64,000 bases of DNA from Paramacrobiotus metropolitanus (Eukaryota > Tardigrada > Eutardigrada > Parachela > Macrobiotidae): positions 1,736,001 through 1,800,000 of the forward strand of contig NW_026570227.1 of NCBI RefSeq assembly GCF_019649055.1, given 5' to 3'. Under the pieces are notes generated by a model, which ran no database searches, was not told the origin of the DNA, and saw only the letters and a program-made list of their open reading frames with translations. The translations under genes and the position numbers were made by a program. Below are positions 35,149 to 63,107 of the stretch, piece after piece; the first letter of the stretch is position 1, and each line of letters opens with the position of its first letter.

Positions 35149-36037
35149 ATGCCGGCCGCCTGCCTCTGCTGGTCAGCCGCAGGCACCACCCACTTCCTCC
35201 TCTCTCTCCTAATCGCTCTCCATGTATTCTCCTTCGCCTCTGCCGGCCTGTTCACCGCGCTTTTCGGCGGAGAAGATCCCAGGTACGATACACCTGAAGC
35301 ACATCTGTCCTTATTCCTTATCCATTAAACAACTTCCAATTTGCTACGGTTTCGGTTGTTTTTTCAATGTAAAAATTTCAATCAGTTTGATTAGAGTACA
35401 TCCGCGCATGTATACACATATACATATATAGACATAATTATATTAAATTATATATACATATATTAAATATATATACATATATACATATATTAAATTATAT
35501 ATACATATATTAAATATACATACATATATTATATATATACATATAGTTACATATACATATATATATACATATATACATATATATACATTATATATCTATA
35601 TACATATATTTGTTACTAGAGCTCATAAGTCAACATGTTTAGTCAAGTCTTCCAGATTCATTGACGTAACATCCGGATAATGATACAGTATATAGGCAAT
35701 CCCATGTAGCGCATATGCATATGTACAATTTGTTTGTTTTTTTTTTGCTTTGCGTATTAAGACACAGATGCACACTACTGCCAAGTTGGCATATTTACCG
35801 TCTGTTTTGTGTTCTTTGTACAGGTACTGCTCGTGGCACGGAACGGCTCCCTTCTGCAGTCCCTCGTGTCCCGCCGGGAAGGTTAAAGCGGAAGGCCGGG
35901 AGACAAAGTGCGGAAGCAGCAGCATCTTCTGCTGTCTGACCGGCCAGAAGATCGTCTGCTGTCCCAAGGACTTCGATTTCAACACACAGCCTGTCATCTT
36001 CGCCAAACTCCCGCCCGAAGCACCCACTGCCCCTTAA
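35149..36037 (+). CDS. Cys-rich secreted peptide family, member 1 (divergent)
   Basis: Exon 1 is 35149-35282 and exon 2 is 35824-36037 (phase 2), 115 residues. Residues about 15-32 are a hydrophobic signal (FLLSLLIALHVFSFASA). The mature region has the family framework C-x8-C-x3-C-x13-C-x6-CC-x7-CC, beginning RYCSWHGTAPFC. It departs from the others in three ways: YC replaces HC, GSSSIF follows Cys4 instead of GPN-type, and the C-terminus ends in a Pro-rich tail (LPPEAPTAP) instead of the AMAIAK block. There is no second intron. The intron carries a long (ATATAC)n microsatellite. As the most diverged and outermost copy it could approximate the founder of the array, by inference. Function unknown. 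Confidence 0.82.
35399..35612. repeat. (TA/TACATA)n microsatellite
   Basis: About 210 bp of TATATACATA-type simple sequence inside the intron of peptide gene 1. Confidence 0.9.
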
Positions 36038-37012
36038 ATTAAACGCCCCCTTCTTTGTTCCCATTTAACAATGCACACCCTTGCTGTTGGCTTAATTTAT
36101 TACTATCGTTTATTAGAATTACTTTTATTCGCACAATGAACACAAATTAAACAGAAAATTGTGCCTCGACTGGTGGTTTGTCAGATGTGTACTTTAAATC
36201 CTTCATTTTTATTAGAGATTCGTGCTGGGAAATGTAATACAAGAGTATCAGTTAACAACAAAAAAACGCATAACAGTAATAACACCATTTCCGTTCAGCC
36301 AAAGGAAAGGCAAAGTGCACTTGTAAAATTTTCCAATAGCCTGATAAGATATCTCCGTTAATGCAATTTGACAACTGTAGTGAGATTATTATAATACTAT
36401 CAATATTGTTGTTTAATTATATACAACATATATTTTATATACATTTACAATATATTTATATACATTTATTTTATACACATTTTTTATATACTGAGCCGAT
36501 TTACATTAAATAAATTGATTTAATTTTAAACCATGAAAAAACACCCAAAATTGTCAGTGTCATTCGGGATCTTAGGACGTCAGTGTGACTAAAAAAAGCC
36601 CCTTTTTTCTCTAACAGCTAGATTGTTGAATTATACTGCGCTACACCGTTGACCGTTGTACGCTGAAATTTGTGCGTATCTTCATCTGATTGATTTTATT
36701 TATTATCGATAAAATTATTTAACACCGCACACCGCTGATTACAATCACCGAATCGGTATAAGCAAAACAATCTTGCCTTTTGCCACTATACACGATCTGA
36801 TTAGCGTGCAGCGTCTACTTCGAGGAATTTCGGCTGTTTTTGGCAGTGGCTTCCCGTTAAATTAAGGTGTTGATATGACTGTCCAACATCAGCGGTATAA
36901 ATATCTCAGCAATCGCAGAAACCGACAGCTGACTGCTGTTAATTATAGCGCCGATCGCCGTTGCGTACTTAGTTATTTTGTGAGGATTAGCGTATTTATT
37001 CCCCGCTGCACA
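36038..37012. other. Spacer between peptide genes 1 and 2
   Basis: AT-rich. TATAAATA at 36895-36902 is the probable TATA box of peptide gene 2. No gene seen. Confidence 0.5.
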
Positions 37013-37763
37013 ATGAATAAGTTTGTCATGTTGACCTTTGTGGCGGTCTGCGTGCTGGTCACCGTGCTGGAGACGGAAGCCAAACCCAAGTAAGCGCACA
37101 TTTTTCTACCTTTACATAATATATAGTTTCTACGTTATAATGTATTTTAACATCGGCATATGTATTTATTTTAAAGTAATTATGTAATCGTACTATCACG
37201 GTATTTCGTTTGTTTGCAGGCACTGCACATGGCACGGAACAGGTTAGTCTGCGTATGCAGTGCGATTATTAATAAATATTTATCCCAAATAAATACAAAT
37301 AAATTCAAATAAATTATTATAGAAGCAAATAGACAATAATAAATGGTATAAACTGCAAATTGTGGCGCTTACATTTTACATAATACACATAAACATATAC
37401 AATATATATTTACATACATACATAATACGTGTATACATGTTTGTAAACATATTTACATATATACTGGCTAATATAAAGTGTTATTGTTTTATTTGTTATT
37501 ACGCGTAACTAACATTTATTAATTTTTGACTTTCGTATAAAATGAAATCTTTCAGTACTAGTCATTATACTGAAAACGTTGAATATTTTCCAGCGCCGCT
37601 GTGCATGCCGTCGTGTCCGAGCGGGAAGAAGAAGATCCCCGGCACAGAATCCAAGTGCGGCCCCAACACCGTGGCCTGCTGCGTGACCAACAAGAAGTTC
37701 GTCTGCTGTCCCAACGACTGGCAGGGTAACGCCGCCAACGCCATGGCCATCGCCAAGGAATAG
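37013..37763 (+). CDS. Cys-rich secreted peptide family, member 2
   Basis: Three exons: 37013-37089 (signal peptide, phase 2), a 23-nt micro-exon 37220-37242 encoding HCTWHGT, and 37594-37763. Precursor of 88 residues. The signal runs MNKFVMLTFVAVCVLVTVLE; the mature peptide has eight cysteines in the family spacing and ends with the conserved block WQGNAANAMAIAKE. The micro-exon donor is ACAG|GTTAGT, so the second intron interrupts the Ala codon after HGT. TATA box about 118 bp upstream of the start. Lys-rich between Cys3 and Cys4 (SGKKKIPGTESK), so the mature peptide is probably cationic there. Confidence 0.87.
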
Positions 37764-38328
37764 CCGTTCACTCCTTAATCCCGCCACCGTTGTACGAACC
37801 ACTGCTCCCATGCCTTTCTGTTTTGAACTGATTTGTAACGCGTCATACTACCATCAACATGTAACGATTGCATACCATAGCGCATTCTAACTGACGCTAT
37901 TATCGCTTAATGTGTACCTAAAAAATCTATGTTTAATTTGCTGTGAAATGCGACGTGTACTGCAATTTGTGAATCGGGAAGCAAATTATGCATGTGCGCG
38001 TCCTGTGCTCTGAAATTGCGTAGATGAAATAAAAAAGGTCGAACATCGGTGCTGCGATGTGATGTTGTGGAAGAGTAATATTTCCCGACCAACAATCGGC
38101 GAGGTCATTTTTAATTGAATCTCACACTGGTAATATAAACAACAATAATGCTGATTATCCAAGCATCAACTACTCTGTGCAAGTTAAAAGGTCATGATCG
38201 ATCACGAAGCGAGTAATCAAAACACAGCAGTATTGGCAAAAAAAGCCGTCTATTTCGCAGCAAACTAGAGTATGTATAGTAATTTTCGGAGATTTGCGTT
38301 TCCACAGCAGGTTGTTAAAAGGGCGTAA
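37764..38328. other. Spacer between peptide gene 2 and inverted copy 3
   Basis: No feature beyond an extended nuclear-receptor-like AAAGGTCA at about 38187. The two genes converge here tail to tail. Confidence 0.4.
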
Positions 38329-39085
38329 TTACGTCTTGGCGATGGCGATGGCGTTGGCGGCGTTGCCCTCCCAGGCCTTGGGGCAGCAGACCAGCTTCTG
38401 GCCGGTGACGCAGCAGGCGATGCTGTTGGGGCCGCACTTGGACTCCGTGCCGGGCACCTTCTTCTTCCCGCTCGGACACGACGCCATGCAGCTACACACA
38501 GACACACACAATCAGTGACCTTTTAAATTAAGCATTTGTCTACGCGTGCGCGGGATGCACTTACAAGGGGCCGTTCCGTGCCATGTGCAGTGCCTGCAAA
38601 GGTCAACAAGCGATATACATAATTCATCTTCGTCAAGTTCTTATATAAGGACGTAGTTCGTATCGAACAGCGAACCACATAATTAAACAAGTGCACACTA
38701 CGTCACAGTTCAAATTTTAAACATTGAAAAAACAACCAAAATCTCTATCCTCCCGTGGGTTAAAAAATAGCGTACTTGGCACACCCGTAGCGTATTATTT
38801 ATGCCATCAAGTTTATATAGGTAGTATATTTATGTCAAGGTTGTATATTATTTGTATAAGTTTATATATGAATATTATTTATAAAATATATTAGTTGGTA
38901 AGAAAACAAATTACGAAAACAATATTAACTGATAATTAAATAATTAAACAATAATAATTAAATATTATAGAAAATCCATAATAAAATTGGTAAAATGCGT
39001 TCGTACTTGTTGCCCCAAGCGTCCGCGGTCCAGCTGCCTAACAACACCATCCCACCCACAAGAACCAGAAAATCAGCTTCTCCAT
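38329..39085 (-). pseudogene. Cys-rich secreted peptide family, member 3 (inverted, broken)
   Basis: The only minus-strand family member. Pieces: signal-like exon 39085-39007, small exon 38593-38565 (29 nt, HCTWHGTAP), and last exon 38491-38329 with all later cysteines and the AAN-x-A-x-AIAK tail. Two breaks are visible. The first exon is 79 nt where 77 or 80 would keep phase, and it meets TAG after 15 codons. The 29-nt exon leaves one base, yet the last exon supplies only one base before its Cys codon, so that junction is also out of frame. Splice signals (GTACGA, GTAAGT, CAG, TAG) are intact. Reading: a recently disabled copy, or two assembly indels. The third exon itself is undamaged. Confidence 0.72.
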
Positions 39086-40105
39086 AATAGCGTTCCGGAT
39101 GGAAGATTCCAACGAGAAAAATAGAATGAGGAAATTAAAGGAGATTAAACTTGGCGCGTGATTTTGACTTTTGGACGTGGCAGCTACTCGTAAGTCGTAC
39201 CGAAAGAATGGCCGTTATATAAAAACGCTGGAGCAAAGAAAATTAATGCACTACGCGTACGAGTAGTACGTTTTGATTAGTGCATACAAAGTGAATACTG
39301 AAGAGCGTCGCAACGATCCCTATCAGTCTTTTAAGCCGCCTTTGATGGCCATAGGAAAACGGGGCGGGATAAAGGTCAAGTGCAGGATGGAATTCGGTTA
39401 AGCCGCGCTTATCCGTCATCAGTCGTCTCATCCGATCTGCCATTTGCAAGAAGTGATGACTAATTACGTATACCCAGGCTGGATAATACATTACCGATTA
39501 GCGGTTGAAAGGTACAGCGGCGCCCTGATTTTGGCTGGAAATTACAGCCGTCTGATTACTTGCGCCAGCTTTCTTAGGTTTCTTAGGTTTTCTTATGCTT
39601 CTTATTTCATTTCCCGAAATTGCCCATAAACTGTCGGGAGATTATGAATGCGTCCCGACGCGTAGTATAGTGTATTAAGGTTTCGTGACTGTTTGCCGGT
39701 TTTTCAAGTGCAATTTGGACTTTTTAACGGCGTTCATAATAAACAGTTATCGACGTAATGTTTTTACGGCCAGTTGCTTGCAGTATAAATTCTGTGTATA
39801 AAGATTAATTCGGTATAATTCGGTATATACGCGGTAATTAAAGACACAAACCGCGTACGAAACTGTACGTACCGGCAAGTATTTTATCAAACTGGCGGCA
39901 CAAGGTTCAACTGGCTTATCGCTGTCGCACAGCTGTGCATGCGTACGACGCATCATCCGCTCGGTTGTTTCCACAGCTGACTGGCACAAAGCTTAACAAC
40001 TTCGTCAACAACTTTTGGCTGTTGCTCTGTTTATCACAACCATAACACTGATTTTCTCCTTACAAGGTACAATTTTTTGCTGAATTTATTTTAATTTTCG
40101 CGAAA
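39086..40105. other. Spacer upstream of the amidase gene
   Basis: Holds the likely promoter of peptide copy 3 (TTATATAAAAACG near 39215 on plus, i.e. TATA-like on minus). No exon seen. Confidence 0.4.
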
Positions 40106-42708
40106 ATGGCGTGGAAATCGTGGACATGGCGGGATTGGTTGATCCACCTCCTGCGTTTATATATTGATTTTATTTCCGACCTCTTGTTCGGCGTGTACTA
40201 CCGCTTCTTCGGCTCCCACCAGCGTCTGCCGCCCGTCCGCTCGGACCTCCTTCGTCTGAGCGCCACCGCCCTGGCGCGGCGCATCCGTGCCGGGCAGCTG
40301 TCCAGCGCCGACGTCGTCGACGCCTACATCCAGCGCATCCAGGAGGTCAACCCCGCCATCAACGCCGTCGTCGCCCAGCGCTTCGAGCAGGCGCGCCGCG
40401 AGGCCCGGGACCTCGACCGCCGCCTGCGGGACACCGGCTTCGAGGGCCTCGACGACGGGGAGTTCGCCGAGTCCCGGACGCCCCTCCTCGGCGTCCCCAT
40501 CACCGTCAAGGAGTGCCTGCAGGTCCAGGGCATGCCGCAGACCTCCGGGGCGGTGGCGCGCCGGCATGTCGTGGCGGAGGCCGACGCCGAGGCCGTGCAC
40601 CGGCTGCGACGGGCCGGGGCCATTGTCCTGGGGGTGACCAACATCTGCGAGGTGTGCATGTGGTGGGAGACGGATTGCAAGGTGTACGGGCGCACCCGGA
40701 ACCCGTATGATGTCAACCGGACGGTGGGCGGGTCGTCCGGCGGGGAGGGCGCGATTATCGGGGCGGCGGGGTCACCATGCGGGATCGGGTCGGATATAGG
40801 CGGGAGTATCCGCATCCCGGCGTTCTTCTGCGGGGTGTTCGGGCATAAACCCACGCGAGGGCTGACACCGTTGACGGGGAAGTTCCCGGCTAGTAATGAG
40901 AATACGGCTCGGTTTAACACCGTCGGACCGCTGTGTCGGTACGCGGAGGACCTCCGACCTTTCTATAAAGTATGTATTTGAAAATAATAATCTTATGTAC
41001 ATAAATTATAGTAAAAAACTATTTACATATAAATAATTTATATATGCAATTATTTATATATAAACACATCCATAAAAAACATATATACATAAACATATAT
41101 GCGTATTATCAAGTACTTACTATAGTGTGAGGAGGACTACCGTTTGACGTCATCATCTCGCATACACTGGAGGGCGGCTGCCATGGTGACAGATGCGCGT
41201 TTTTTACGGTTTTTGTTAGTTTTCTCAGCATATTTCTTTTCTCTTCTATTTCTAGCCCCTCATGCTTGGGTTTCTAAATTCAATATGATCTGTTAAAAAT
41301 ATCAGAAAGCTTCAGAGGAGAAAGGAACAATAAAAAATATCTTAAAAAGGGACAATAAAATCTGTGGGCCTATGGTAAGCAGTAGCACACCAGTGCATTC
41401 TGTATGCGACAGTGATGACGTAGTCGACCGTTGCAGAGTCGCTTCCCAGTCCTCTACCTATAGTAAGTTCTTGGTATTATATAAAAATTAATAACAAATG
41501 GAAATACACGTTTTTAGTAAATATTAGAAAATTTAAAAGCGAGCATTTTTATTTACTTTTACTTCTGTGGGTATTTTATATTTATATTTTTCTTTACAAA
41601 TAATTATAATTTCAGGTTGTTTTGGGACCGGAAGCGAGGACTTTATCCCTGGATACCAAGGTGGACTTGTCGAGGTTGCGCGTCCACTACATCCTGCAGA
41701 TCGAGCACCCCTTCATCACGCCGGTACGCAGCTACATCAAGGAGGCCGTGCAGAAGGCCGCGAACCACCTGGCCTCCAAGCACCGCGCCCAGATCGTCCC
41801 CGAGGCGCCGATCAAGGAGCGGCTGGCGGCCTTCCGCTACACCGGCGACTTCTGGACGTCGGAGATCATCCACGATCCGAGTCATTCCTTCTCGGCGGAT
41901 ATGCTCAACGGCGCCGGGGAACTACAGCCGCGGGCGGAAGCCCTCCGCTGGATTAGTGGGCGGTCGGAACACACGTTGCCGGCGATTCTCCTGGCCGCCA
42001 TGGAACAGGCCACGCCCACCGACCAACAACGGTAGCTGTGAATGATTTTACCGTGTAGTTATCGAGATCTGAAAAGCATGTCAAAAAGTCGGTTTTCGGT
42101 AACTTCTCACGGTAAAATATTTAAAAAATTAAAAATAATAAAATAAAAAATACGCGTCAATGCATTTCAATTTCATTTCAAAATTAAAAATAATAAAATA
42201 AAAAATACGCGTCAATGCATTTCGTCAATGCATGCCTTGGCGTTTACACCGGAAACGGTTGCAGGAAACACTGGAGTAAAGTGCGCGATGAACTGGAGAA
42301 CGAGATCGTGGATATTCTGGGCAACGACGGCATCCTCATCATGCCGACGCATCCCGCACGGCGCCCTATCAAAACCAGCCCAAAGTGATGCACCTCAATA
42401 TTCTCTACACCGGTATGTACCGGTCGACTAAAAAAATCATAAACAAATTTACGCTGGTCTTCAGCAAAAATCACAATTTATTTTCTAGTAAATAATAAAA
42501 CGTTTATATAATATCAGCGGAAGTTGTCCATTATATAGCGCTCTTCAACACCCTGGGCCTGCCGGTGACGCATGTGCCGATGGGCGTGGACGGGGCGGGG
42601 CTACCGTACGGCATCCAGATCATCAGCAGCCATTACAACGACCACCTGACGCTGGCGGTGGCCTGCGAGCTGGAGAAGGCCTTTGGCGGCTGGAGGGAGC
42701 CCAGTTAA
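40106..42708 (+). CDS. FAAH2: FAAH2-like amidase-signature hydrolase (exon 3 frame break)
   Basis: Exons 40106-40969, 41616-42031, 42265-42412, 42518-42708; about 540 residues. It is an amidase-signature serine hydrolase of the fatty-acid amide hydrolase 2 type, which cleaves lipid amides such as anandamide on membranes. A membrane segment (about residues 11-35) precedes the domain. The Ser-cis-Ser-Lys triad is readable as K135 (ITVKEC), S210 (GGSSGG) and S234 (DIGGSIRIP), with the FAAH spacing of 24 between the serines. The last exon has NDHLTLAVA...LEK-x-FGGW, as in FAAH2. Exon 3 is 148 nt where 149 is needed: the frame changes between PTHPA and YQNQPKV near the CGGCGCCC tract at 42357-42365. 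Read literally it stops at 42388. The rest is under clear coding constraint, so an assembly indel or very recent mutation is likely. Confidence 0.85.
42126..42225 (+). repeat. 55-bp tandem duplication in amidase intron 2
   Basis: AAATTAAAAATAATAAAATA followed by TACGCGTCAATGCATTTC occurs at 42126 and again at 42181. Confidence 0.85.
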
Positions 42709-43634
42709 GCCAGATGGAAAAGGTCATCGGATGCCGCTATGCCACCGTTATTTACATGAGGCGCTAAGTTGCCCCTGAATTGTTTTGCAGTAAAAAAAAT
42801 AACATTTGTTATGGTGTGCTGTGTGTGCTAAACTGTATAGACTCTACGGTTTATGCCGGTTTTCCGTGTTGCCCACGTCCAGGGCCGTGTTTGTTGTTTG
42901 CCGTATGCCGGTGGGTGTTTTGGCACTCGCTGCTGTTTTAGTGTTTTTTTACCTCGATGCTGGTTTTTTACGACTTTTTTTCTGATCCTGCTCACCGCTA
43001 AAATCAGCAGCAGCCTGTGCTGTATTTCTAACACGGATTCGCGTTGGTGTTTAAAAAAGTAATGTTAACGTACGTTACAGAAAAATATTGCAAAATTTTG
43101 TGTTAAATAAAATTTACTGCGAGAACAAATAAAAAATTTTTAAAAAATAATGGAATTTTTAAATTACAGTTTATGATTAATTGAAGAAGTAAAACGTAGC
43201 GACCAATTAATATTAAATTTTTAATTACTTAAACGAAAATCGATTTAAAATCGAGCAATTTCAACCTTTTTTCGTAACTTAAGAGCGCGCATTCGTGAAT
43301 GAATATGCGAGCTAAAAATTTGCTCGCATTTAAAAAACATTAACGCATCTTTTCTCAGAAAAATTACAAAAATTCTTGGGATCAGGTCCGTTGCTACTGC
43401 CTGATGATTTTGTCCGAAAAGCACTGATGCTACGATTCCCCATCAACGTCCGCAGCGCCGGAAAGAAGCTAAACTGCTTCGTCATGGTTAAAGTAAAAAC
43501 AAAACAAGCAGGTTATAACTTATAAGGTAAGTAAATTTCGGCGTAGTTAAGAGTTTTATGTCACTTCTTGGCTAGCTGCAAGCGAGGAAGGATACCGCAG
43601 TGCGCTAGTGTATGTACACGTACTTAACAATCCG
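42709..43634. other. Spacer between amidase and peptide gene 4
   Basis: A GC-balanced portion (42.8-43.05 kb) is followed by AT-rich DNA. No gene seen. TATATATAA at 43635-43643 is the probable TATA box of peptide gene 4. Confidence 0.45.
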
Positions 43635-43748
43635 TATATATAAATGGCCCGGCACCGGCGCTAAGGGACAGTCAACCGTTGCCAGCTCTTACCGGAACAC
43701 ACCGCGTTTTTCACCGGATAATCGCCGAGCAAATAATTTTTAGCGAGA

Positions 43749-44548
43749 ATGAACAAAATTCTGTGGGTGACCTTGGGCGCGCTGGTGCTGGCCGGTCTCA
43801 TCTCCACCTCGGAAGCCCTTTTCAGCGGCAGCAAGTAAGCCATCATCTCCATGCTTTTCGCAAAATATTTTATAATAATTCTAGCGTATTTTAATTATTT
43901 TTCTATTTTCATATATCATAAACATCTTTTAATGCTTTATAATGTAAATAAATGCACTGGTGCAAATACGTCTAATTATTATTTCTAATTATGCAATTTC
44001 TTTTGCAGACACTGCACATGGCACGGTACGTAGCATCCCGTAAACGAGACACGCCTGACACTGGAATAACGCCTACTATGAATCCATTATACGTACATGT
44101 GAATCTATGCGGAAGTTGATTATACAATTAAATTTAAGCTTTTTTTTAATTTTTTATTTTTTTTTATTGCGCGTTTTTTTATTTTGGTTAAAAAACGCAG
44201 CGTCTGAGGCAGGTTTTTGCGTACTCAATTTTCTGATTGTCTAATTAAAGCAAAGCGTTGCGATGGCCGGTGATCGGTGTTGACGCAACAACAAATTTGC
44301 GAGATGACCATGGATGAATGTGCCGGTTTATGTGCACCGGAAGTGCAGCTGCATATTCCTGTCTAATTACAGGTACCGCCCCGATCTGCATGCCCTCGTG
44401 CCCGAAGGATAAGAAGAAGATTCCCGGCACGGAGTCCAAGTGTGGTCCCAACGCCGTGGCCTGCTGCATCACCAACAAGAAGTTCGTCTGCTGTCCCAAC
44501 GAATGGCAGGGCAACGCCGCCAACGCCATGGCCGTCGCCAAGGAATAA
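43749..44548 (+). CDS. Cys-rich secreted peptide family, member 4
   Basis: Exons 43749-43834 (signal), 44009-44025 (a 17-nt micro-exon encoding HCTWH plus split codons on both sides) and 44373-44548. Precursor of 92 residues. The signal is MNKILWVTLGALVLAGLI, with a pro-like SEALFSGSK end shared with member 5. Eight cysteines in the exact family spacing; Lys-rich loop KDKKKIPGTESK; ends NAANAMAVAKE. The micro-exon is flanked by TTTTGCAG and G|GTACGT, and the last exon by ATTACAG|GT. TATA box about 114 bp upstream. The mature sequence is closest to member 2, although the micro-exon ends six nucleotides earlier. Confidence 0.87.
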
Positions 44549-45094
44549 ACTGCCCTAACACACCGAACTCGATCCTGGATAACATGCAATCTCCTTTCTA
44601 CTTCTCCTTCTCCGATAACCATGACCGGCGTACTTTGCGATTGCTTTATTCGGCTGGTTGTTTCGATGTCTTATATAATTATTGTGCTTTCTCGGTTACT
44701 CAATTGCATTGTCTTCATTAATGTCAACGGTTTGTACTACAATTTACCGCTCCTTGTTGGAGAGAAAGCGTAAAATAAATTTTCTCAGCAACAGGTTTAT
44801 CAGGTTGGCTGTCGTCCGCGTGTATGTATATATTTAAGCCGGCTCGCGTAATTAACGCGGAATGAGTATGGTTGGTTAGGGGAAAGTGATATTAGTATGC
44901 AGCCGGAAGGGAAATACCGTCAGGTACTCGACAAGTAGCTCGTTCATAAAGTTATGCTACATGCCCGAATCCGGTATATAATTGCCGACTGCTACAAAAC
45001 GGCGCTCTGTGCAGAGAGCTTTTTTACTTGGCGCCTTATTTGTTTGAAGTGAGATTTATTTTACCGCCGTCAAACTTCCTTATACACCGGTATA
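44549..45094. other. Spacer between peptide genes 4 and 5
   Basis: TATATAA at 44975-44981 is a likely TATA box for member 5. An AATAAA lies near 44774. Nothing else seen. Confidence 0.5.
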
Positions 45095-45763
45095 ATGTGG
45101 AAATTCTGTTTGGCCGTGATTGTCGTGGCCGGGCTCATCGCCAGCTCGGAAGCGCTCTTCAGCGGCAGCAAGTAAGATTTTTAAAAATTAAATTTCATAT
45201 TAAATCGGCCATCAGCCGGTATACCAGTAAACAAATATGTACATATAAAATCTATCAAAAATCAAATATTAAATTTTAATTTAGCCACCTATATTGATAT
45301 GTCTCGTCTCAATTTTTCAAAAAGACGCTGATTTTGTTTTGCAGGCACTGCACATGGCACGGTAAGTAAACGTAACGGAAGACGGCGTTAGAGGAGAAAT
45401 TCTTGGATCATCGCAAGATGAAACTGGTTGGCGCACACACTTTTACCAAGAGTCTTCTGGTTAATTTAAAATAAAATTGTTGTTGGAAACCCGGAAACCG
45501 GTTAGGTGGCTGTACGGTATCAGCCGGAAGAATACTTCTTAATGTAATGACCAGAATGGTTATCGATGTGTTTAATTAACCAAACAGGTACGGCGCCCTT
45601 CTGCATGCCGTCCTGCCCACGTGACAAGAAGATCATCCAGGGCACGCAGTCCAAGTGCGGACCCAACACCATCACCTGCTGTCTAACCGGCCAGAAGCTG
45701 GTCTGCTGTCCCAAGGAGTGGGAGGGCAACGCGGCCAACGCCATGGCCATCGCCAAGACATAA
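45095..45763 (+). CDS. Cys-rich secreted peptide family, member 5
   Basis: Exons 45095-45171, 45345-45361 (17-nt micro-exon) and 45588-45763; precursor of 89 residues. The exon-1 end SEALFSGSK and both intron positions are identical to member 4, so these are a recent tandem pair. Its loop between Cys3 and Cys4 is RDKKIIQGTQSK-type and the segment between CC pairs is LTGQKLV, closer to members 1 and 3. Ends AANAMAIAKT. TATA box about 120 bp upstream. Confidence 0.87.
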
Positions 45764-46185
45764 ATCGATGTCTCCTGGAATTAGCGGATTAAATATATAC
45801 AGTCAGATGCCTACGACGTTCGATGTATTCGAAAATAATAAGATTTTAATTGCATGCCTTTACTAGACGCTACTCTAGTGATGCATCGGTACATTCATTA
45901 GAATGCCTGTTCTTATAAATTACCGGAAGTATGCGTAACACCGGTATACCGGTATGGTTTTGCTACAGTGCCAAGTGCTATTAAAGCCGCAGGTTAATTA
46001 AACTAATGGTTGAAGGATTCTGCCGTATAATGCGCTGCCGTATCGTTTTTATAAGAGACCTAGCGCACCTAACCACAAAGAAACAGAAAACACTTAGTAA
46101 AGCTCCGAATCTTCCTATACCGATAGTATATACGGTTTATATATTTCCTATACGGTTTATATATTTTTGAAATGATACACAACAA

Positions 46186-46395
46186 TGCGTTTAAACTTTT
46201 TGCCCATTTTAGTTCGCCATATCTCGGCAACCGGATGATGCGCGCGCAAACGATTCTCAGAACAATGTATACAAATCATTTAGCTTTAGAATGACATAAA
46301 GTATTGCAAAACAGTAATTCAGAGTGCGCGAAAGTGAAAGTTTTAGTGTATCGGTGTATGCATCCATTTTTGACACCAATATGTACCGGGTGTCA
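46186..46395. mobile_element. Palindromic MITE, right-half copy C
   Basis: Shares with copies A and D the ordered words TTTAAACTTTTTGCCCATTT, ATATCTCGGCAACC, GCGCGCAAACG, ATGTATACAAATCATTTAGC, GCGCGAAAGTG and the TGTACCGGG end. Left half absent. Confidence 0.75.
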
Positions 46396-46726: not shown

Positions 46727-46872
46727 GGAAGACGACTGGAGTAACACACAGGCGAAACCCGTTCCCATGAATTTTTACGTCAAAGATTGTCACTGGAGAT
46801 ACAGCGCGGTAACCCGGCATCGGTTATGGGAACGATCGGAGGAGCGGAAAAGTTAATGAAATTCTGATGTTG
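46727..46872 (+). mobile_element. LINE 3'-terminal fragment
   Basis: The plus-strand frame gives HEFLRQRLSLEIQRGNPASV and then MGTI, nearly identical to the C-terminus of the antisense LINE frame at 9.6 kb (HEFLRQRLSLEIQRGNAASV). It has an in-frame stop upstream and nothing 5' of it. A severely 5'-truncated insertion. Confidence 0.82.
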
Positions 46873-47124
46873 TAAAAAATGCCGGTTAAACGCGTACTAT
46901 ACTACTCGAGTACAGATACATAGTCGGTGCTGAGTTTCTCGGTAGCTTTTTAATGCCTCGCTTTCCATCCCGTTAATTTACGTATACATTATGCAAAATT
47001 TTGTACATAAGAATTTTGTACAGTTTACATACAATGTGTAACAGTCTGAGCGGGGTACTGTTTGATGGCAGCAATCGGACTGCGTTGTAATAATGTACTG
47101 CTATCAGTCGTGCGAGTGCTCTTT

Positions 47125-47235
47125 AAGGAAACTGGAAACCGGCAAAGTACGAGCGTATTTGCGTCAACGGATCAGCATCGAAATCCCGCGAGGAAAACGC
47201 AGCATCTACATATATAATGCGAGCAGCATCACCGA
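47125..47235 (+). mobile_element. Diverged LINE 3'-terminal fragment
   Basis: The frame reads VRAYLRQRISIEIPRGK and then continues ASSITDGEF, related to the same LINE C-terminus but more diverged than the copy at 46.7 kb. Confidence 0.55.
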
Positions 47236-48133
47236 CGGCGAATTTATACGAAATTTTTTCGATTATTCTACCGCGCTTTGTGTGCAGATGTCGCTGTGTA
47301 TCCTGTCATACCGTTTCCAACGAGATCAGAACGTGGAAAAATCGGTTATCGAAAATTAATTAAAACAATGGTTCTTTTCCACGGTGAAATTAAATCTATT
47401 AATAAGCCCAAGTGTAAATTACAACGGCTGTGCAACTATTGTAAACTGGCAGCATCTGCGACGGTTGTAAGTTGTAATTGAAAATATTTATACGGATTGT
47501 ACCGAAGTTACACTTAGCTAGAAAATAAAGTTAGCAGTTAAATCAACCAATGTTACAATTGCAATTAGTTTATACCAGCGCAGTCTGTCTGTTATGTGAA
47601 ATGGATATTGGCCGAATAAAAATATATGTCATAATGTCAATACACGTCGTAGGTTTCTGCGGCGAAACTTTCGCCGGTTTCCTGGTATCTACACTCATCA
47701 ATTCCATCGAATAACGAAAACCACAATATTTTGGACCGAAGCACGCTTCATCTCCCGTACACAAACATCTGCATACCGGGAGTTTTACTTGAAATTCCAA
47801 GGCGGCCGTTGTAAATATGCAAAGTCCAAATTGAAACCACAGCATTACAGATCGTACACATGGTTATTTAATAGTCCATTTTTGGCGGAATTCGGCGGGT
47901 GGGGAGACCGGTTTTTTCCTCACTCAGCGTACTTGGAGTATCGTGTGTCGTTATTGGCCGGCGCACGCGCACACCTTTCCCGTGAAAGCTCTTATTAATG
48001 AATCATCTCTTTCTACTTGAAACGACGCAATTTCCTTGGGCATTGTATGCACAACGCACGCCGCACTAAGGAGGAAAACAACGGTGATCTGTGCATGTCG
48101 GTGTGTCAAGTACGCGGGGCGATCAGCTGGGGC

Positions 48134-48157
48134 TATATAAACCGATGGAACCGCGAT
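48134..48157 (+). promoter_or_regulatory. Conserved core-promoter block of peptide gene 6
   Basis: TATATAA at 48134-48140, continued by ACCGATGGAACCGCGATA. The same block precedes gene 7 (50981) and, with two changes, gene 8 (53039). It lies 123 bp before the ATG. Confidence 0.75.
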
Positions 48158-48256
48158 AACCCGGCATTACTACAAATGCTTTTACCGGAAACAGTGGTTT
48201 TACTTGCCATCATTCCTGCAAATTATTTGAATTAGTTTCACTTATCAGATTGAGAA

Positions 48257-49158
48257 ATGGAGGCCAAGATTGTTGTATTTCTCTGTGTGCTGGGATTCTT
48301 GTGTTCCGTGGAGGCGTGGGGCAACAAGTAAGCGAGTAGCAAATTAACTTACTGTTAGCAGCGTTCAGATAACAATAATTATGTGCAAAATATTTACATA
48401 TACTGTAGTCTCGTATAACTTGGGAGTTGTTTGTTGACTTTATAATTCAATTTTCTTTAAGAAAGCAAAGTGCAAAAATGACCTCGTACCCAACACGCCA
48501 GTTTCTTTACCGCAGTTTATTAAATTTTTTTTGCAGAAAATGCGCATTATAATTTTTATTGTGAAATTAATCGGCGACGACGGTTTTTGTTCCAGTTTTT
48601 TTCCGGTATTGATTTTTCAAACCTGTCAGGTGGGCTTTCGCCGAAAACCCATTTATTATTATTTCGACTTTATTATGAACACAGGTTAACGCGGACGTAT
48701 CGTAGATAAAAGGAGAGATGATCTGGCTGTTAATACAGCTAATAATAACATACGTAGAGTATCGACACATATAAAGGTGATCGTGATATAGTTCATGGAG
48801 ATAAATGTGTATGGTACTCGTATAGTACACACTAATATTCAGTTTCGGAACTGCAAGCCATTTTTTGGTCCTACAATGTAAAATAAAAATATAGACGAAT
48901 TAACTGCATGCGTTGTAAATTAATAGCATATTTATTAACTGCAGGCACTGCGTGTGGCATGGATCGGCGCCGTTCTGTATGGCCAGTTGTCCCAGCGGGA
49001 AATTCAAAGTGGAGGGCACGCAGTCCAAATGCGGACCCAACACTATTACCTGTTGCATAACCGGCGAGAAGTTCGTCTGCTGTCCCAACGGCTGGGAGGG
49101 CACCGCCGCCAACGCCATGGCCATCGCCAAGACCAAATTCTTCAACTCCCTCCACTAA
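48257..49158 (+). CDS. Cys-rich secreted peptide family, member 6
   Basis: Two exons: 48257-48327 (signal peptide MEAKIVVFLCVLGFLCSVEA, ends WGN plus split codon) and 48945-49158. Precursor of 94 residues. The HC-WHG motif, here HCVWHGSAPFC, is fused to the Cys exon with no micro-exon. Eight cysteines in the family spacing. After AMAIAK the protein continues with TKFFNSLH, a tail unique to members 6-8. The three-gene subfamily (6, 7, 8) shares intron position, tail and promoter block, and so arose by recent tandem duplication. Confidence 0.88.
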
Positions 49159-50980
49159 ACCATGACAATTACGTGCCGACTCATCGTGCTCAAGAAGAAT
49201 GACAATCGATCTGAAGCGTAGGATCCGGAAGCTGGATATTGTAGTAATTCCACGTTTTGCTACAATGTTCAGTTCACACTGCAACAGTATTGTACATTAT
49301 TTTTTACAGTGCACACTTGTAGAAATGGGTGGCTATACGCATGTTGGTGTTGTTAATGTTTGTTTGTTGTTGGAATACAATGTCATAGTGCTGCTATACA
49401 TGTATGGATGGTTGGTGAACCTTGAATGGGACTCGATGTAAATTAAATTTACACAACATTTACCGGCATTGAGCATCGTCCTCGTATCTGCACTTATAGT
49501 GCACTTCAAAATTATTCCGGGAAGATAGCAAATTAGCGTAGATTGGTGCACCGGTCCACAGGAAGGCTCTGTCGGGTGAAAATTTCATTTTCAGCATTAT
49601 CATGGCTACCTTTCCGTCCTTTCTTCTAAATTATACTTAATGCACACTTGTACACAAGTATTATGAGTTGCAGTACATATTTTGCTCGCAACGATACTAT
49701 CTAACCACCATATATAACCACGTCGGCGCACCCAATTTTAATGTCAACTGATCGGTTTCTCCGGCGTTCGGCGTGATCTTCCCGGGAGGGGGAATAAACA
49801 ACACGTGCCAACAAGACAGACAATTTGCAATTCGTGTCCTAACCATGTGGTCTGCACAGTAGTCAGAATAATAGCAGTTAGGGCAGGTAATTAATGTGGT
49901 TGAGCGAAGGAAGAATCCGGCATTACCGGATGGCATGCCTGCAGGCTGGTCATACACCGGCTGGCCAGACGCCGCGTCCAGTAATTATACTGTCATTCCC
50001 ATAAATCATTAGAATTAATATAATACAGTCAACCGTTTTCTGCAGAATATCCAGGGCTTATTTGACAGTCAAACTGGTTGGCCTGTCGTACAAGGACGGC
50101 CGGGCAGCAATGTGTGAAAGAACGGGGAACGGCGTCCGTGCGCATTATGTGAACATGTACAACACCGTTATACATAATTATGCGCAGGTACGTGCATACC
50201 ATCTGAATTCCGCCCTGTTCGGTTTTCGGCTTCGACTACTTAACTAATTTTATGCAGGGCCGGCGTTCCGGAAGCGGTACTTGTGGATGCGACGATCCTG
50301 TAATATCCGTAGAAATAACGGGATCCCGCTGTATAGTTATGTACTGCATTGCGCATTTCCGGTTTCGGATATGAGAGTCACTTTAATGGGTAAGAGCCAC
50401 CAAGGTAGAATAACGGCAGATTCAATACGGGTGTATGCGCATACCAAATACAGAAACATGCGAGAAACAAACAAAATAATTTCACAAGTAATATGTATGT
50501 AAACATATTACTTGTGAAATTATTTTGTAAAATTTCCCGGCCGGTCGCCAGCAAAACTGTCCAACATTCTGGCAACCTACCCCCATCGTGTTGGCCGAAG
50601 AGGCCCCATCTTTATAATCCTGAAGTGCAGTGGTATCACTCAGATGGAGATGGGCCAATCATGAACCGGTTAGCTATTTACTAGATCGTCACTTCAAAAC
50701 AATAATGGAATGCTAGTTGTTCTATCGAAAGGATGTACATACATATTGTGCACTTTTACTTTTCGAGTAAATTTACAGTTTACTTGTGTAGGTAAGCTAC
50801 GATTTATCGGTCTTACAAATTCGAAATAAAAAGTGTGCTAATAATACTTAAGCACCATTTCCGATGCCAATCAATGTCCAATAGTACGTAGAGTGTGGCG
50901 AGGACCGATTGGTACATTACTCAGCGGAATCAGCTGTTGGACGCCGATTGGGAAAAACGGGCCGTGTAGCACTGCAGAGA
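49159..50980. other. Spacer between peptide genes 6 and 7
   Basis: No gene. Holds a perfect 26-bp-arm hairpin (50471-50528) and a GC-balanced region upstream of gene 7. Confidence 0.5.
50471..50528. repeat. Perfect 26-bp inverted repeat with 6-nt loop
   Basis: The left arm 50471-50496 starts ACAAAATAATTTCACAAGTA; the right arm 50503-50528 is its exact reverse complement; the loop is ATGTAA. Flanks are not complementary. It resembles a single small hairpin transcript or a palindromic insertion scar rather than a known family. Confidence 0.9.
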
Positions 50981-51005
50981 TATATAAACCGATGGAACCG
51001 CGATA
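50981..51005 (+). promoter_or_regulatory. Conserved core-promoter block of peptide gene 7
   Basis: TATATAAACCGATGGAACCG followed by CGATA, identical to the block of gene 6 over this length. It lies 147 bp before the ATG. Confidence 0.75.
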
Positions 51006-51127
51006 TCTTTGTCAAAACAGCACATACCAATCTGTTGCAAACACTTCACCGAAAGTAGCAATTTATTCACTGGCTATCAGTTGTGCAGTGTAATTATTGT
51101 TGAGCGAGGTCATATTCTTCATATAAA

Positions 51128-52060
51128 ATGCATATTAAAATTGTTGTATTTCTATGCGTTCTTGGATCCTTATGTTCCGTGCAAGCGACAGGCAACAAGT
51201 AAGTTTACAGAGAAATTAGTGAAATTAACCGGTATTAAGGGAAATGGCCCGTTGTACATGGGGTGTCAGAAATGGGATACATACACCAAAACTTTCGCTT
51301 TCGCGCACTCTGAATCACTTTTTCGTAATACTTTATGTCATTCTAAAGCTAAATGACTTGTTTGCAGTGTTCTGAAAACCATTTGCGCGCGCAAAATCCG
51401 GTTGCCGAGATATCGCGTACCAAAATGGGCTAAAAGTTTAAATGCATTGCTGTGTACCAAAAGTCTGGTCATTACCCGATCTTCTTGAAGCTTTGCTGTA
51501 AAAGACACAGGGCCATAAAGTCGAAAGTGAACCAATTTCAGATCCATAGCATTTTTTTCCGATTTTAAAATGAATTTCAAAAATTCTAAAATTCATTTTT
51601 AAATTATGGAAAAGTGCTATGAACCAGAAATTGGTTCACTTTCAAGTTTCAACTTCATGGTCATGATTGTGTCTTTTACAGCAAAGTTTCAAGAAGATCG
51701 GGTAATAACCAGACTTTTGGTACACAAATATACATTTAAACTTTTCGCCCATTTTAGTTTGCCATATCTCGGCAACCCGACGTTCCGCGCGCAAACGGTG
51801 ATTCGGTGTGCGCGTATTCAGTAATCAGCGGTAATAATTTGTGCAGGCACTGCGTGTGGCACGGGTCGGCGCCGATCTGCATGGCCAGTTGTCCGGCCGG
51901 TAAATTCAAGGTGGAGGGCACCGCCTCCAAGTGCGGTCCGAACACCATCGCCTGCTGCGTCACCGGCGAGAAGTTTGTCTGCTGTCCCAACGGCTGGGAA
52001 GGAACGGCGGCCGACGCCATGGCCATCGCCAAGACCAAGATCCTCAACTCTCTCCACTGA
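51128..52060 (+). CDS. Cys-rich secreted peptide family, member 7
   Basis: Exons 51128-51198 (signal MHIKIVVFLCVLGSLCSVQA, ends TGN) and 51847-52060. Precursor of 94 residues, family Cys spacing, WHGSAPIC core, tail TKILNSLH. Its single intron is largely a palindromic MITE (copy D), so a transposon has landed in a gene of the cluster without damaging the splice sites visible here (AACAA|GTAAGT, TTTGTGCAG|G). Neutral and acidic residues replace many of the lysines seen in members 2 and 4. Confidence 0.88.
51239..51815. mobile_element. Palindromic MITE, copy D in an intron
   Basis: The left end GGGAAATGGCCCGTTGTACA and its arm run to a centre of TTTTAAAATGAATTTC-type at about 51565-51600, then the complementary arm runs to about 51815, where the terminal part is missing. 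Lies wholly within the intron of peptide gene 7. Confidence 0.8.
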
Positions 52061-53038
52061 TCGCGAAATACCTTTCCCCTCGCAGCATAGCAGGCCGGTA
52101 ACCAGCGTCCCGCGGGATAATGCGGGCAGATGATGGGCAAAGCATTATTTATGCTGATTCTTTGCACTGTTTACGCCGTTCTTGATTTCATTGCACTGGT
52201 TCAAATGTAAACATATCCAACAGTATTTTGTTGTTATTTTGTACATGCTACGTGTGCCGGATTGTATAAGTGTGCTAGTTGATACTTATGAGATGAAGAA
52301 GGCTAAAACATTTTGCAGGACTTCCGGTAGAATTCTTTTGAGAAACATATCGGCATTTGAGAGCTACAGGCGATCAGTACAGAATGATATCTGAACGTTC
52401 TGAGATTCGGCCCGGTACATAGCACCAAATTCGTGTACATTCCACGGAAACTTCCGCTGTCGCGCACTAACAGACACTTTTTTGCATTGCTTTATGATAT
52501 TTTGTAGCCAAAAGATGTGTGTACGTAGGCGTGAAATCCGTTTGCGCGCGCAACATCCGGTTCGGGAGTTATGGCTGCTAGAAAATTCCAAAAAGTTTAA
52601 ATGCATTCAGGTGTGCCAAAAGTCTCATTACAAACCGACATTCTTCAAATTGTGCACGTAAATGCGCATTAGTACTGTATATAAAGATCGTTTTTACACC
52701 GAACCAAATTTTTCCATCATTGTATTCAAATTTTAAAATAAATTGCAAAATTTGTCAAATTCATTTTAAAAGATATTGGAAAAATTTATTTCTTTCTGGT
52801 TCGGTATAAAAACGATCTTCATGGGTACATGCGTTTCCGCTGTATAAATGGTCGAACTTGGAACATTTAGCAGCTAATAATACTCCCTACCGTGGAATTT
52901 TTACCACGCTTCCTCTAATCAAAACGAAACTGCTGATAGTACTGCTGTGTATCGATCCTAATCAGCGTCCAATAGCAACACGTGGCCATTAGGAAACAGA
53001 ATAATTTTCCTACTAGAAGGAAACAACAAGTTCAGTTG
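52061..53038. other. Spacer between peptide genes 7 and 8 with MITE copy E
   Basis: A diverged palindromic MITE occupies about 52408-52840 (CCCGGTACATAGCACCAAAT; GCGCGCAACATCCGGTTCGG; paired AACGATCTT motifs), with the right terminal part missing. No gene otherwise. Confidence 0.65.
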
Positions 53039-53060
53039 TATAAAAGCCGACGGAACCGCA
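53039..53060 (+). promoter_or_regulatory. Core-promoter block of peptide gene 8
   Basis: TATAAAAGCCGACGGAACCG plus CA, a two-to-three-base variant of the block at genes 6 and 7, 136 bp before the ATG. Confidence 0.68.
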
Positions 53061-53174
53061 CTTATCAAAACTGTCCAACCTACATATTCCGAAAGCTTTA
53101 CCGGAAACTGCAGTTTGTTTTCTTTTTACCCTGTACTTTGCGCTCCATCGAGGTCATACTCTTCATTAAAAAAA

Positions 53175-54161
53175 ATGCAGACGAAAATTGTCATATTTTG
53201 CTGTGTCCTTGGAGTCTTATGCTCCGTAGAAGCCTACGGCAACAAGTAAGTTGACCAAGAATCTGCCGAAATTAACCGATCTTACGTATACGCCATACGT
53301 CCTGGGATATGACGTGCACAGATTAATTATTATACCTGCAGCTTTACTGCATAGTTTTACGTTAGTAAACACTTTTTAGAAGGGATAAGCGTAATACTCG
53401 TACATTCGTACTAATCATTATTTTATGCCGTTGCTTCAGAATCTTACCAAATTCTAACCATCGGCAGAAATTCAAGTTATTCAAACCAATATTTGTACAT
53501 TTGGAAGAGCGGTTGATCTGCATTACAGTACATCCGGCCCAGATTCGTATTCCTCATTATATTTTTCTTGTGGGAATTAATCGGTGTTATACTGCAGAAT
53601 CCTTGAGCGACGTTTAAATATTCTAACTATATTCGTTTCCAGTAATGTTTTTAATCCTGGCAATAGAAAATCAGCAAATAAAGCAAGCCTGCGCTGACAG
53701 ACACTAATTAAAATTTTCGAATTTTTTTTACGGTATTTTGCACCCAGTGACCAATACATATAATATATAAAACTAATCCTTAATTACGCATTTTTTTCCT
53801 CAGTAATTTCAGTTCGATTCGACCAATAAAAGCATCCACATATATAAAAATGTGTACTGTATCTAAAGCGGCCACAATATGCGGAAAATAAAGTATCGTT
53901 GAAGAAGAAAACGGCAGCATAATTAGTAAACATTCGGTCAATTGCAGGCACTGCGTGTGGCATGGATCGGCGCCGTTCTGCATGGCCAGCTGCCCGGCCG
54001 GTAAATTCAAGGTGGAGGGTACCCAGTCCAAATGCGGGCCCAACACCATCGCCTGCTGCGTCACCGGTGAGAAATTCGTCTGCTGTCCAAACGGCTGGGA
54101 GGGCACCACGGTCCAGGCCATGGCCATCGCCAAAACCAAGATCTTCAACTCCCTCCACTGA
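53175..54161 (+). CDS. Cys-rich secreted peptide family, member 8
   Basis: Exons 53175-53245 (signal MQTKIVIFCCVLGVLCSVEA, ends YGN) and 53948-54161. Precursor of 94 residues with the family Cys spacing and tail TKIFNSLH. In the block before AMAIAK it has TTVQ where the others read TAAN or TAAD. The extra Cys-Cys in the signal is removed on secretion. Third member of the two-exon subfamily. Confidence 0.88.
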
Positions 54162-56115
54162 ACGCCGACACGCTTTCCCAGCCGCGCCCTGATTATGCTT
54201 GTCGGTCGGTCTCAGAGAAAGCCACAGATGTACACATGTTATTCGTCGTTCGTGCGGTTTCGTATAAGCAAGTTTAGGAAAAATTTATTTTTTTCCTGTG
54301 CCCCGTGGTGCAAGTGACGCTGGCCTGCTGTTAACGTAACTGCTGCTGTTTATCTTCTTGTTAATAATATTGATAATAAATTTTATTGGACACGATACCG
54401 GTAAAAACAGGATATATGCTTAATTTGTGCTGTCTGTGATTTTTCAAATTGCCATCTGCACCGTGTATTACAAAATGTCGTCCCAATTGCTAATGCACAC
54501 TGATGATAATTTTTAATTAATGTAGCAAAGCACGCATAGCACTTCCGGCTTAATCCGGGCTTCGTTATGTAATTCGGCATTCAATAAATTAGCAACTGTA
54601 GCCTGTAGTGTAAATATCGGATCTGATAAACGCCGAAGAACACTGAAATATATGGCAAAATCAAGATAAGGACACCGTCGATGGTGGATCGGAAAATGTG
54701 GGTAGCACCACCGTATAATGACCTTTACCCGGGCAGATTCTTGTAATTGCGTTTCTTGAGAAAGCATCGTACGAATACAGTGCATGCCGGTGTTATTACT
54801 GACTTCGTTTAGTTCGTTATGAGTTTCCAGTAATCGCGGCAAACTACAAACCAACCTAAAAACAGACATTTCCGCCATAGTACAGCTAGGACAAAGCGCT
54901 TGTTATTTTGGCGGGATTTCTGTGTTCTCTTGCACGTGAACTCAGCTGCTGCGTTTAAAATAAATCAATTTAGAAATAAAATACAGCCATTATGAAAAAA
55001 TAAATAATTTAGTTACTTAATAAAAAAATTTCTGTACGTTAAAGCAAAATTAGGCATGCGGCTGTAGATGCTAAATTTATTGGGCTTGAAAACATATGAA
55101 CTCCTGACTTGTCCGCTCGAGGAAAATGACCCGATACATGGTGTCAAAAATGGTCAAAAATTCGACTTTACGGCCATGTTCCTTTTACAGCAAAGTTTCC
55201 TGAAGATCGGGTAATAACCAGACTTTTGGTACACACCAATGCATTTAAACTTTTTACCCATTTTTTTTCGACAGCAGCCAGTACATATAATAATGCGCCT
55301 GCGCGGGTTTACACTAATAAAAATTTTTACCCATTTTAATACGCTATATCTCGGCAACCGAATGTTGCGCGCGCAATCGGTTTTCAGAACAATGTATACA
55401 AATTATTTAGCTTTAGAATGACATCAAATATTACCAAAAAGTGATTCGGAGTACGCGAAAGCAAAAGTTAAGTGTATGTATCCCCTTTTTGACACCATGT
55501 ACCGGGCCGTTTTCCTTCAATGAACCGACAACGAAGGCATCCTTAATATTTTGCCGGTATATCCGCATTGTTCCTTGAGTCAGAGTTTGTTGGCCGCGCG
55601 AAGCACTTGAGAATTACGCTAAACCGAACCACGCGGCCAACCTGGTTTCGCGCTGAATATCTTCTTCGAAAAACAGTGACCAAGGCGGCAAACCCGGCCG
55701 GATATAACGGTGATTATTCGAGAAGTGGTGTGGTATGATAATATTAGAAGAAAACGGCTCATTTGCCGGCGGTGCGGTGTCATGTTGAAAATCCACTTGA
55801 GCCGGCACTTTCCGCCGGGATTACAAACACACCCGGCCATTCTTCCGCCGGTGTGAGTAAACGCTGACCGGGGCGCGATTTCTGTTTGCCAGAGGCATTC
55901 ATTCAGGTGACGCCTCACTGCCAAAATCCCCTATATCAACATTCCACCTTGGTGCCATTTTTTTTAACAAAATCCTTTCCAGTCTGAACCGTCACCTGCT
56001 GCACTGCATTTGCGTTGCGTTTCCGGCTGGGATATTCGCTGAGATATTTTTTCCCTTAATTCCGCGGCGGCAGTTTCCGGTTGTGTAATTTTTCATAATT
56101 TTTAAAGTTGCGAAA
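54162..56115. other. Spacer between peptide genes 8 and 9 with MITE copy F
   Basis: MITE copy F lies at about 55121-55515. Its left end GGAAAATGACCCGATACATG and right end (CATGTACCGGGCCGTTTTCC) are both present, but most of the left arm is deleted and an 80-bp GC-containing insert sits at about 55265-55330 between duplicated TTTTTACCCATTTT words. A CTATATCAA near 55930 is a weak TATA candidate for gene 9. No other gene. Confidence 0.6.
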
Positions 56116-56651
56116 ATGAATAAACTTGTGGTTATCGCTGCTGTCTGTGTGATGTTCCTGGTTGCCGTGGATGCCGCTTCCAATATGTAAGCCGTTAATT
56201 AAAATTTCGCTCCCATATTTTTTTTAAAAAAATTTTTCTTGTAGTCACTGCACTTGGCACGGAACCGCCCCCTTCTGCATGGTACGTTAACAATTATGTA
56301 CTCTGATGTTTTAGCATTCGAAACGGTTCGGAAAAAAACATAGATTCGTAGACTTAGCTGTACCATATTGAGATTATCAGCTCATGCTCTGCCGTTGAGT
56401 AAGGTCGGTAGGATAGATTATTACGGTAATTATTCCTCGTACTGATCTCTCCGTCATACTTTAAATATATTGACCGGTCAATTGTATGTGTGCAGCCGTC
56501 GTGTCCGAAAGGCAAGAAGGCGGTGGACGGGACCAAGTCGAACTGCGGCCCCAACAAGATCGCCTGCTGTATAACCGGCAAGAAGCTGGTCTGCTGCCCC
56601 AACGACTGGCAGGGCAACGCTGCCAACGCCATGGCCATCGCCAAGACCTAA
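56116..56651 (+). CDS. Cys-rich secreted peptide family, member 9
   Basis: Exons 56116-56186 (signal MNKLVVIAAVCVMFLVAVDA), 56245-56281 (37 nt, HCTWHGTAPFCM) and 56496-56651; precursor of 87 residues. Cys spacing as in the family; loop KGKKAVDGTKSN; ends NAANAMAIAKT. The second intron is here in phase 0 after the Met codon, ten codons beyond the start of the HC motif, a different site from members 2, 3, 4 and 5. The first intron is only 58 nt. Exon 3 is in frame to TAA at 56649. Confidence 0.87.

Positions 56652-61274: not shown

Positions 61275-63107
<1,833 letters not shown>

What the first reader, a model, noticed from the sequence alone, without database searches (positions are those of the whole stretch)
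35149..56651. Tandem family of nine secreted 8-Cys peptides with an invariant framework
Members at 35.1, 37.0, 38.3 (inverted), 43.7, 45.1, 48.3, 51.1, 53.2 and 56.1 kb. Every intact copy has a signal-peptide exon ending in a phase-2 intron, then HC/YC-x-WHG-[TS]-AP-x-C and the spacing C-x8-C-x3-C-x13-C-x6-CC-x7-CC. Most then carry a conserved Ala-rich block around AMA[IV]AK. Spacing is constant while loops vary from Lys-rich to neutral, the pattern of a diversifying secreted peptide scaffold. The WHGTAP-x-C core faintly recalls small Cys-rich domains of nematode and arthropod secreted proteins, but I cannot name the family. Role (defence, cuticle, signalling or other) is open.
Basis: partly seen in the sequence, partly recalled or inferred. 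Interest (0 to 1): 0.9.

Follow-up and report, generated by a model that had tools for sequence, protein, structure and literature searches.

The report
Tardigrade array of secreted 8-cysteine peptides
A water-bear genome carries a row of copied genes for small, positively charged, disulfide-braced secreted peptides, built on a protein scaffold shared with fungi and bacteria that we could not find described, which makes them good candidates for microbe-binding defence peptides.

Summary
The window is from the tardigrade Paramacrobiotus metropolitanus: five of my eight spliced models equal its annotated 'uncharacterized proteins' letter for letter. Eight intact genes and one inverted, probably broken copy carry the stated framework; a tenth member and four more distant loci lie elsewhere in the genome. 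The framework is not private to this array. It is a form, longer by two residues in two loops, of a secreted domain (C-x-W-x-GTAPFC-x3-C...GDGACCWTGYK-x2-CC) found in other tardigrades, Artemia, amphioxus, many fungi and bacteria, with no family in the Pfam, NCBIfam and PDB copies searched. Correlated cysteine loss predicts two disulfides, C1-C8 and C4-C5. Some bacterial relatives carry ricin-type or tachylectin lectins or polyglycine-hydrolase-like repeats, pointing to a binding module. The tardigrade branch is cationic (core +2 to +6 against a mean of -1 elsewhere) with a predicted C-terminal helix. Array members are constrained in every loop, so 'diversifying' is not supported. Best guess: secreted microbe-surface-binding or antimicrobial peptides. 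Function is untested.

The parts
35149..36037 (+). M1: exons 35149-35282 (signal) and 35824-36037 (8-Cys domain); lacks the AMAIAK tail
   Evidence: splice model; identical to P0005, LOC129582293
37013..37763 (+). M2: exons 37013-37089, 37220-37242, 37594-37763; second intron in the Ala codon, phase 1
   Evidence: identical to P0003, LOC129582218
38329..38593 (-). M3: inverted copy; exon-2-like 38565-38593 and exon-3-like 38329-38491; no signal exon found, joint out of frame: probable pseudogene
43749..44548 (+). M4: exons 43749-43834, 44009-44025, 44373-44548; second intron in the Gly codon, phase 1
   Evidence: identical to P0004, LOC129582221
45095..45763 (+). M5: exons 45095-45171, 45345-45361, 45588-45763; second intron as in M4
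   Evidence: identical to P0002, LOC129582222
48257..49158 (+). M6: exons 48257-48327 and 48945-49158; no second intron
51128..52060 (+). M7: exons 51128-51198 and 51847-52060; no second intron
53175..54161 (+). M8: exons 53175-53245 and 53948-54161; no second intron; its mature region was used for the structure model
56116..56651 (+). M9: exons 56116-56186, 56245-56281, 56496-56651; second intron after the Met codon, phase 0
   Evidence: identical to P0001, LOC129582283

Best explanation
Shown: a tandem array, largely one P. metropolitanus clade, of cationic single-domain peptides with signal-type exons, built on a domain that also occurs in fungi, bacteria and a few other animals. Inferred: four disulfides, two of which can be assigned (C1-C8 closing the domain, C4-C5 stapling the long loop), hold a small beta-rich core, followed in the tardigrade branch by a C-terminal helix. 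Most likely mechanism (inferred): the peptide is secreted into body cavity, gut or cuticle surface, where the rigid core binds a surface polymer of microbes, as lectin-linked relatives in bacteria suggest. The added positive charge favours anionic microbial envelopes, so that it opsonises, agglutinates or kills. Duplication raises dose or divides tissues, since the sequences are constrained and not diversifying.
For: Signal-type exon in 8 of 8 intact genes. Homology to the widespread domain: 60 of 104 candidates at E<=1; 224 of 1534 at E<=0.01, 120 listed; a profile of the tardigrade branch alone reaches a fungal protein, P0154, at 5.7e-11; 26 bacterial loci. Co-loss of C1 with C8 (124 both, 41 neither, 2 exceptions of 167 domains) and of C4 with C5 (120 both, 41 neither, 6 exceptions), not across the pairs; it holds with one domain per 60% cluster (C1/C8: 24, 7 and 1 of 32; C4/C5: 11, 18 and 3 of 32). 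Bacterial proteins with Ricin_B_lectin (L059), Tachylectin (L062) or BTRD1 repeats (L046, L047): 4 of 10 scanned, of 26 available; BTRD1 also in P0106. Core charge +2 to +6 in 16 of 16 tardigrade WHG peptides scored, against mean -1.0 (range -4 to +4) in 108 other CC-ended domains. Model mean pLDDT 81.8 with strands and a helix at 54-68.
Against: No expression, infection or activity data were reachable. No credible match to any antimicrobial family. Cationic charge is only suggestive; Lys-rich secreted peptides can be structural. Six of the ten bacterial proteins scanned had no Pfam partner above cut-off, and I picked the ten by eye from 26. Many immune effectors show positive selection (recalled); these do not. 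The best AF2 model is confident but the other four average 64-70.
Confidence: 0.42

Rival explanations
1. Structural or matrix role: the peptides are secreted into cuticle, mucus or egg shell and cross-link or pack polysaccharide there; copies serve dose and life-stage.
For: Purifying constraint rather than diversification; lectin-linked relatives suggest polysaccharide binding; tandem duplication is ordinary under dose demand (inference).
Against: No low-complexity or repeat character in the mature peptides; the tardigrade cationic shift is not needed for a packing role (inference); no expression data.
Confidence: 0.25
2. Signalling or regulatory peptide (hormone-like, or a protease inhibitor as the automatic label WAP implies).
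For: Small, secreted, disulfide-rich; UniRef names some relatives 'WAP domain-containing' (P0009, P0013, P0014 in the listing).
Against: No WAP match in Pfam at E<=10 and different cysteine order; the single-domain form is shared with fungi and bacteria, unlike animal hormones.
Confidence: 0.15
3. Protection in drying: secreted stress peptides of anhydrobiosis.
For: Present in three eutardigrades.
Against: Compact disulfide domain, unlike the disordered or lipocalin-type tardigrade protectants (recalled); Hypsibius, a poor anhydrobiote (recalled), has at least nine members.
Confidence: 0.08

Closest known systems
Eutardigrade WHG peptides (Hypsibius exemplaris BV898_09192, _16693, _01819, _02078, _11838-11840, _12865, _15254; Ramazzottius RvY_14620, RvY_02070, RvY_02071)
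   Same: C-x-WHGTAP-x-C core, eight cysteines, C-terminal A-x-A-[IM]-A block in most; cationic core in the eight scored; consecutive locus numbers suggest small tandem groups
   Different: C3-C4 loop is x11, not x13; they fall outside the array clade M2,M4-M9 (support 87/95)
Fungal and actinobacterial GTAPFC small secreted domain (e.g. P0016 Jaapia, P0025 Xylariaceae, P0034 Actinoallomurus)
   Same: Eight cysteines in the same order, GTAPFC, CC-x-TG-x-K core
   Different: Loops x11 and x4, on average slightly acidic, no C-terminal AxAIA block
Alpha/beta defensins

Membership tests
Widespread GTAPFC secreted domain (name mine; no library family found) | G-x-A-P-x-C-x3-C ... C-x-T-G/N-x-K-x2-C core | tested here: met
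   8 of 8 intact models; profile links to fungi, bacteria and amphioxus at E 1e-8 or better (that profile includes this genome's outlier domains), and to a fungus at 5.7e-11 without them
Widespread GTAPFC secreted domain (name mine; no library family found) | C1 with C8 and C4 with C5 present together | tested here: met
   all eight intact array members have all eight cysteines; family-wide co-loss
Beta-defensin (automatic label on P0007) | match to Pfam defensin profiles | tested here: not met
   0 of 14 domains list a defensin model at E<=10 (HMMER filters drop most hits above 0.1)
Beta-defensin (automatic label on P0007) | six cysteines, C-C-C-C-CC | tested here: not met
   eight cysteines
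Alpha-defensin | defensin fold | tested here: inconclusive
WAP four-disulfide core | Pfam WAP match and WAP spacing | tested here: not met
   no match listed at E<=10; two CC pairs, different order (spacing of WAP recalled)
CC domain PF04942 | Pfam match above cut-off | tested here: not met
   1 of 14 domains, at E 0.18
CDGSH iron-sulfur domain | C-x-C...C...H ligands (recalled) | tested here: not met
   profile touches 3s2r at E 0.027; array members have C-x-W and a Cys where the ligand His would be
Antimicrobial peptide (functional class) | kills or binds microbes, induced by infection | not testable with these tools
   needs expression and assay

The most novel reading that the evidence does not exclude
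An undescribed four-disulfide extracellular domain shared by bacteria, fungi and a few animals was turned in tardigrades into the phylum's own family of cationic antimicrobial or opsonising peptides, expanded in tandem: the missing effectors of an immune system that apparently lacks parts of the canonical Toll pathway.
Probability: 0.28. Interest if true: 0.72.

Novelty: new variant of a known kind. Interest (0 to 1): 0.55.

Why it matters
A 2020 survey of tardigrade immunity (PMC7056985; [quoted passage not shown] This array gives concrete, testable candidates. Separately, a domain found in fungi, bacteria and animals, with predictable disulfides and some lectin partners, has no family entry in the Pfam and NCBIfam copies searched here; naming it would annotate many 'hypothetical' secreted proteins.

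Tried and rejected

The single-sequence fold (pLDDT 61.9) was superseded by the alignment fold. Automatic names (Beta-defensin, WAP, Carbohydrate-binding) were treated as leads, not tests.

Considered: the second introns as copies of one introner element. The five share no sequence with one another at E 1e-3, though that of M2 matches the AT-rich first intron of M1 at 72-81%. That of M4 found only itself in the genome (a search that skips simple repeats and very common words); that of M9 holds a genome-wide repeat; those of M2, M3 and M5 were not searched. So one introner family does not explain them all.

Literature: motif and locus searches gave no paper on the family (one search listed one lasso-peptide paper, not opened). 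Wider searches gave listings. Opened by 'find', passages only: PMC11191345, PMC2835947, PMC7056985 and, PMC9912923. This is absence in the open-licence library only.

Full report
What was checked. The nine loci were read base by base and spliced (M9, one base off there, corrected). Eight are intact: a signal-type exon, a phase-2 intron, then the cysteine domain. All eight match C-x8-C-x3-C-x13-C-x6-CC-x7-CC. Five models (M1, M2, M4, M5, M9) equal annotated proteins of Paramacrobiotus metropolitanus letter for letter, which names the organism and supports the splice sites. M6, M7 and M8 were not among the proteins returned. M3, inverted, has no signal exon of the scanned type on its strand and its two domain pieces do not join in frame by my reading.

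Where else in this genome. The window is 1736001-1800000 of contig 7 in a 169.8-Mb, 533-contig assembly. A tenth member of the same subfamily lies on contig 28. More distant domains lie on contigs 39, 32, 114 (two domains in one protein) and 8 (two exons). These outliers already show the link to the broader family: G-x-x-P-F-C and G-x-K/R-x2-CC remain, and those on contigs 32 and 114 lack both C4 and C5. On contigs 39 and 8 the C1 codon would lie on or across an exon I did not model, so they are not in the cysteine counts.

The wider family. Profile search of the protein database found 60 of 104 candidates at E<=1, among them seven Hypsibius and two Ramazzottius proteins, an amphioxus protein, many fungi and some bacteria. 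A second search found 224 of 1534 at E<=0.01, of which 120 were listed, adding Artemia and two-domain fungal proteins. A third, with the tardigrade branch alone, found 53 of 906 at E<=1, bringing Hypsibius to nine and Ramazzottius to three WHG members, with consecutive locus numbers (BV898_11838-11840; RvY_02070-02071), and reached a fungal protein at 5.7e-11. The prokaryote scan gave 26 bacterial loci.

Disulfides. In 167 distinct domains from 145 proteins, C1 and C8 are both present in 124 and both absent in 41, with 2 exceptions; C4 and C5 are both present in 120 and both absent in 41, with 6 exceptions. C1 against C5, as control, shows no link (p 0.69). The search pattern itself required C2, C3 and C6, so nothing is learned about those. 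The domains are related by descent, so p-values are inflated. With one domain per cluster at 60% identity the link remains (24 both, 7 neither, 1 exception of 32 for C1/C8; 11, 18 and 3 of 32 for C4/C5); the C1/C5 control has p 1.00 there and 0.06-0.48 in the other five groupings. I infer C1-C8 and C4-C5; the other two pairs lie among C2, C3, C6, C7.

Partners in bacteria. Each of the 26 loci gave an ORF with the motif (mechanical starts); 9 of 26 ORFs hold two domains by my pattern. Of ten ORFs that I picked for a scan, two carry five BTRD1 repeats each, one a Ricin_B lectin, one Tachylectin repeats. Six had nothing above cut-off, three of these with sub-threshold hits (GDPD once, SOK twice). 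Pfam describes BTRD1 as a polyglycine-hydrolase-like structural repeat; for the N-domain of such an enzyme, built of five repeats, a part in substrate positioning or exosite binding has been speculated (PMC9912923, passages). This supports, without proving, a binding module in secreted proteins.

What is special in tardigrades. All 16 WHG peptides scored (8 here, 7 Hypsibius, 1 Ramazzottius; the contig-28 copy and P0147-P0150 were not scored) have a core charge of +2 to +6; 108 other CC-ended domains average -1.0, range -4 to +4. Most share a C-terminal A-x-A-[IM]-A block (M1 does not), which the model renders as a helix in M8. In a 25-protein tree M2 and M4-M9 form one P. metropolitanus clade (87/95), M6-M8 a tight subclade (100/99), M1 stands apart, and the contig-28 copy groups with Hypsibius and Ramazzottius proteins (85/90) (whole proteins, some long branches). 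So most of the array looks like a lineage-specific expansion.

Selection. All 21 pairwise core dN/dS values are 0.04 to 0.44, with dS from 0.54 to 2.13, so some are near saturation (M1 left out as most distant). By loop, pooled pN/pS is 0.23-0.49 over the seven; within M2, M4, M5, M9 it reaches 0.75 and 0.84 in the x6 and x7 loops, which may be relaxation.

Function. Nothing here measures function. Secretion, disulfide bracing, lectin company in some bacteria, and a cationic shift in tardigrades make microbe-surface binding or antimicrobial action the most likely single reading (0.42), followed by a structural matrix role (0.25). Work on tardigrade immunity asks for such effectors (PMC7056985, passages).

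Novelty. At least five of the genes are in public annotation as uncharacterized proteins. The domain is not in the Pfam and NCBIfam copies used, and I found no paper on it in the open library. I file it as a new variant of a known kind: secreted cysteine-rich peptides on an apparently undescribed scaffold.

Noticed in passing
37243-37593, 38492-38564 (-), 44026-44372, 45362-45587, 56282-56495: A second intron splits the WHGTAPFCM stretch at different places: Gly codon (M4, M5), Ala codon (M2), near Pro/Phe (M3), after Met (M9); it is absent in M1, M6-M8 and the contig-28 copy. The intron sequences are unrelated to one another. Looks like repeated intron gain within about 20 bases of coding sequence.
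   Followed up: partly
56339-56457: The M9 second intron holds a ~118-base stretch repeated across the genome (39 other places scored, of 172 candidates, 89-93% identity), in eight cases as same-strand pairs 3.5-4.3 kb apart, like ends of an LTR-type element.
   Followed up: partly
40052-42708: An amidase gene (Pfam Amidase, E 2.5e-67 on its first exon; fatty-acid-amide-hydrolase-like and extent by eye) sits inside the array between M3 and M4.
   Followed up: partly
46173-46351, 51281-51525, 51668-51799, 52443-52575, 55161-55469: Interspersed direct and inverted repeats (73-89% alike) lie between and, at M7, inside array members and could have helped unequal exchange.
   Followed up: no
62303-63019 (-): Open frame rich in Cys-Pro repeats, possibly a secreted protein.
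   Followed up: no
31778-32377 (-): Open frame made of a tandem repeat of about 18-20 residues.
   Followed up: no
10908-11642: F-box-like protein (Pfam E 1.9e-7).
   Followed up: partly
L040, L042, L043 (Nitrosospira): The domain ORF reads in frame from what looks by eye like the end of an insertion-sequence transposase.
   Followed up: no
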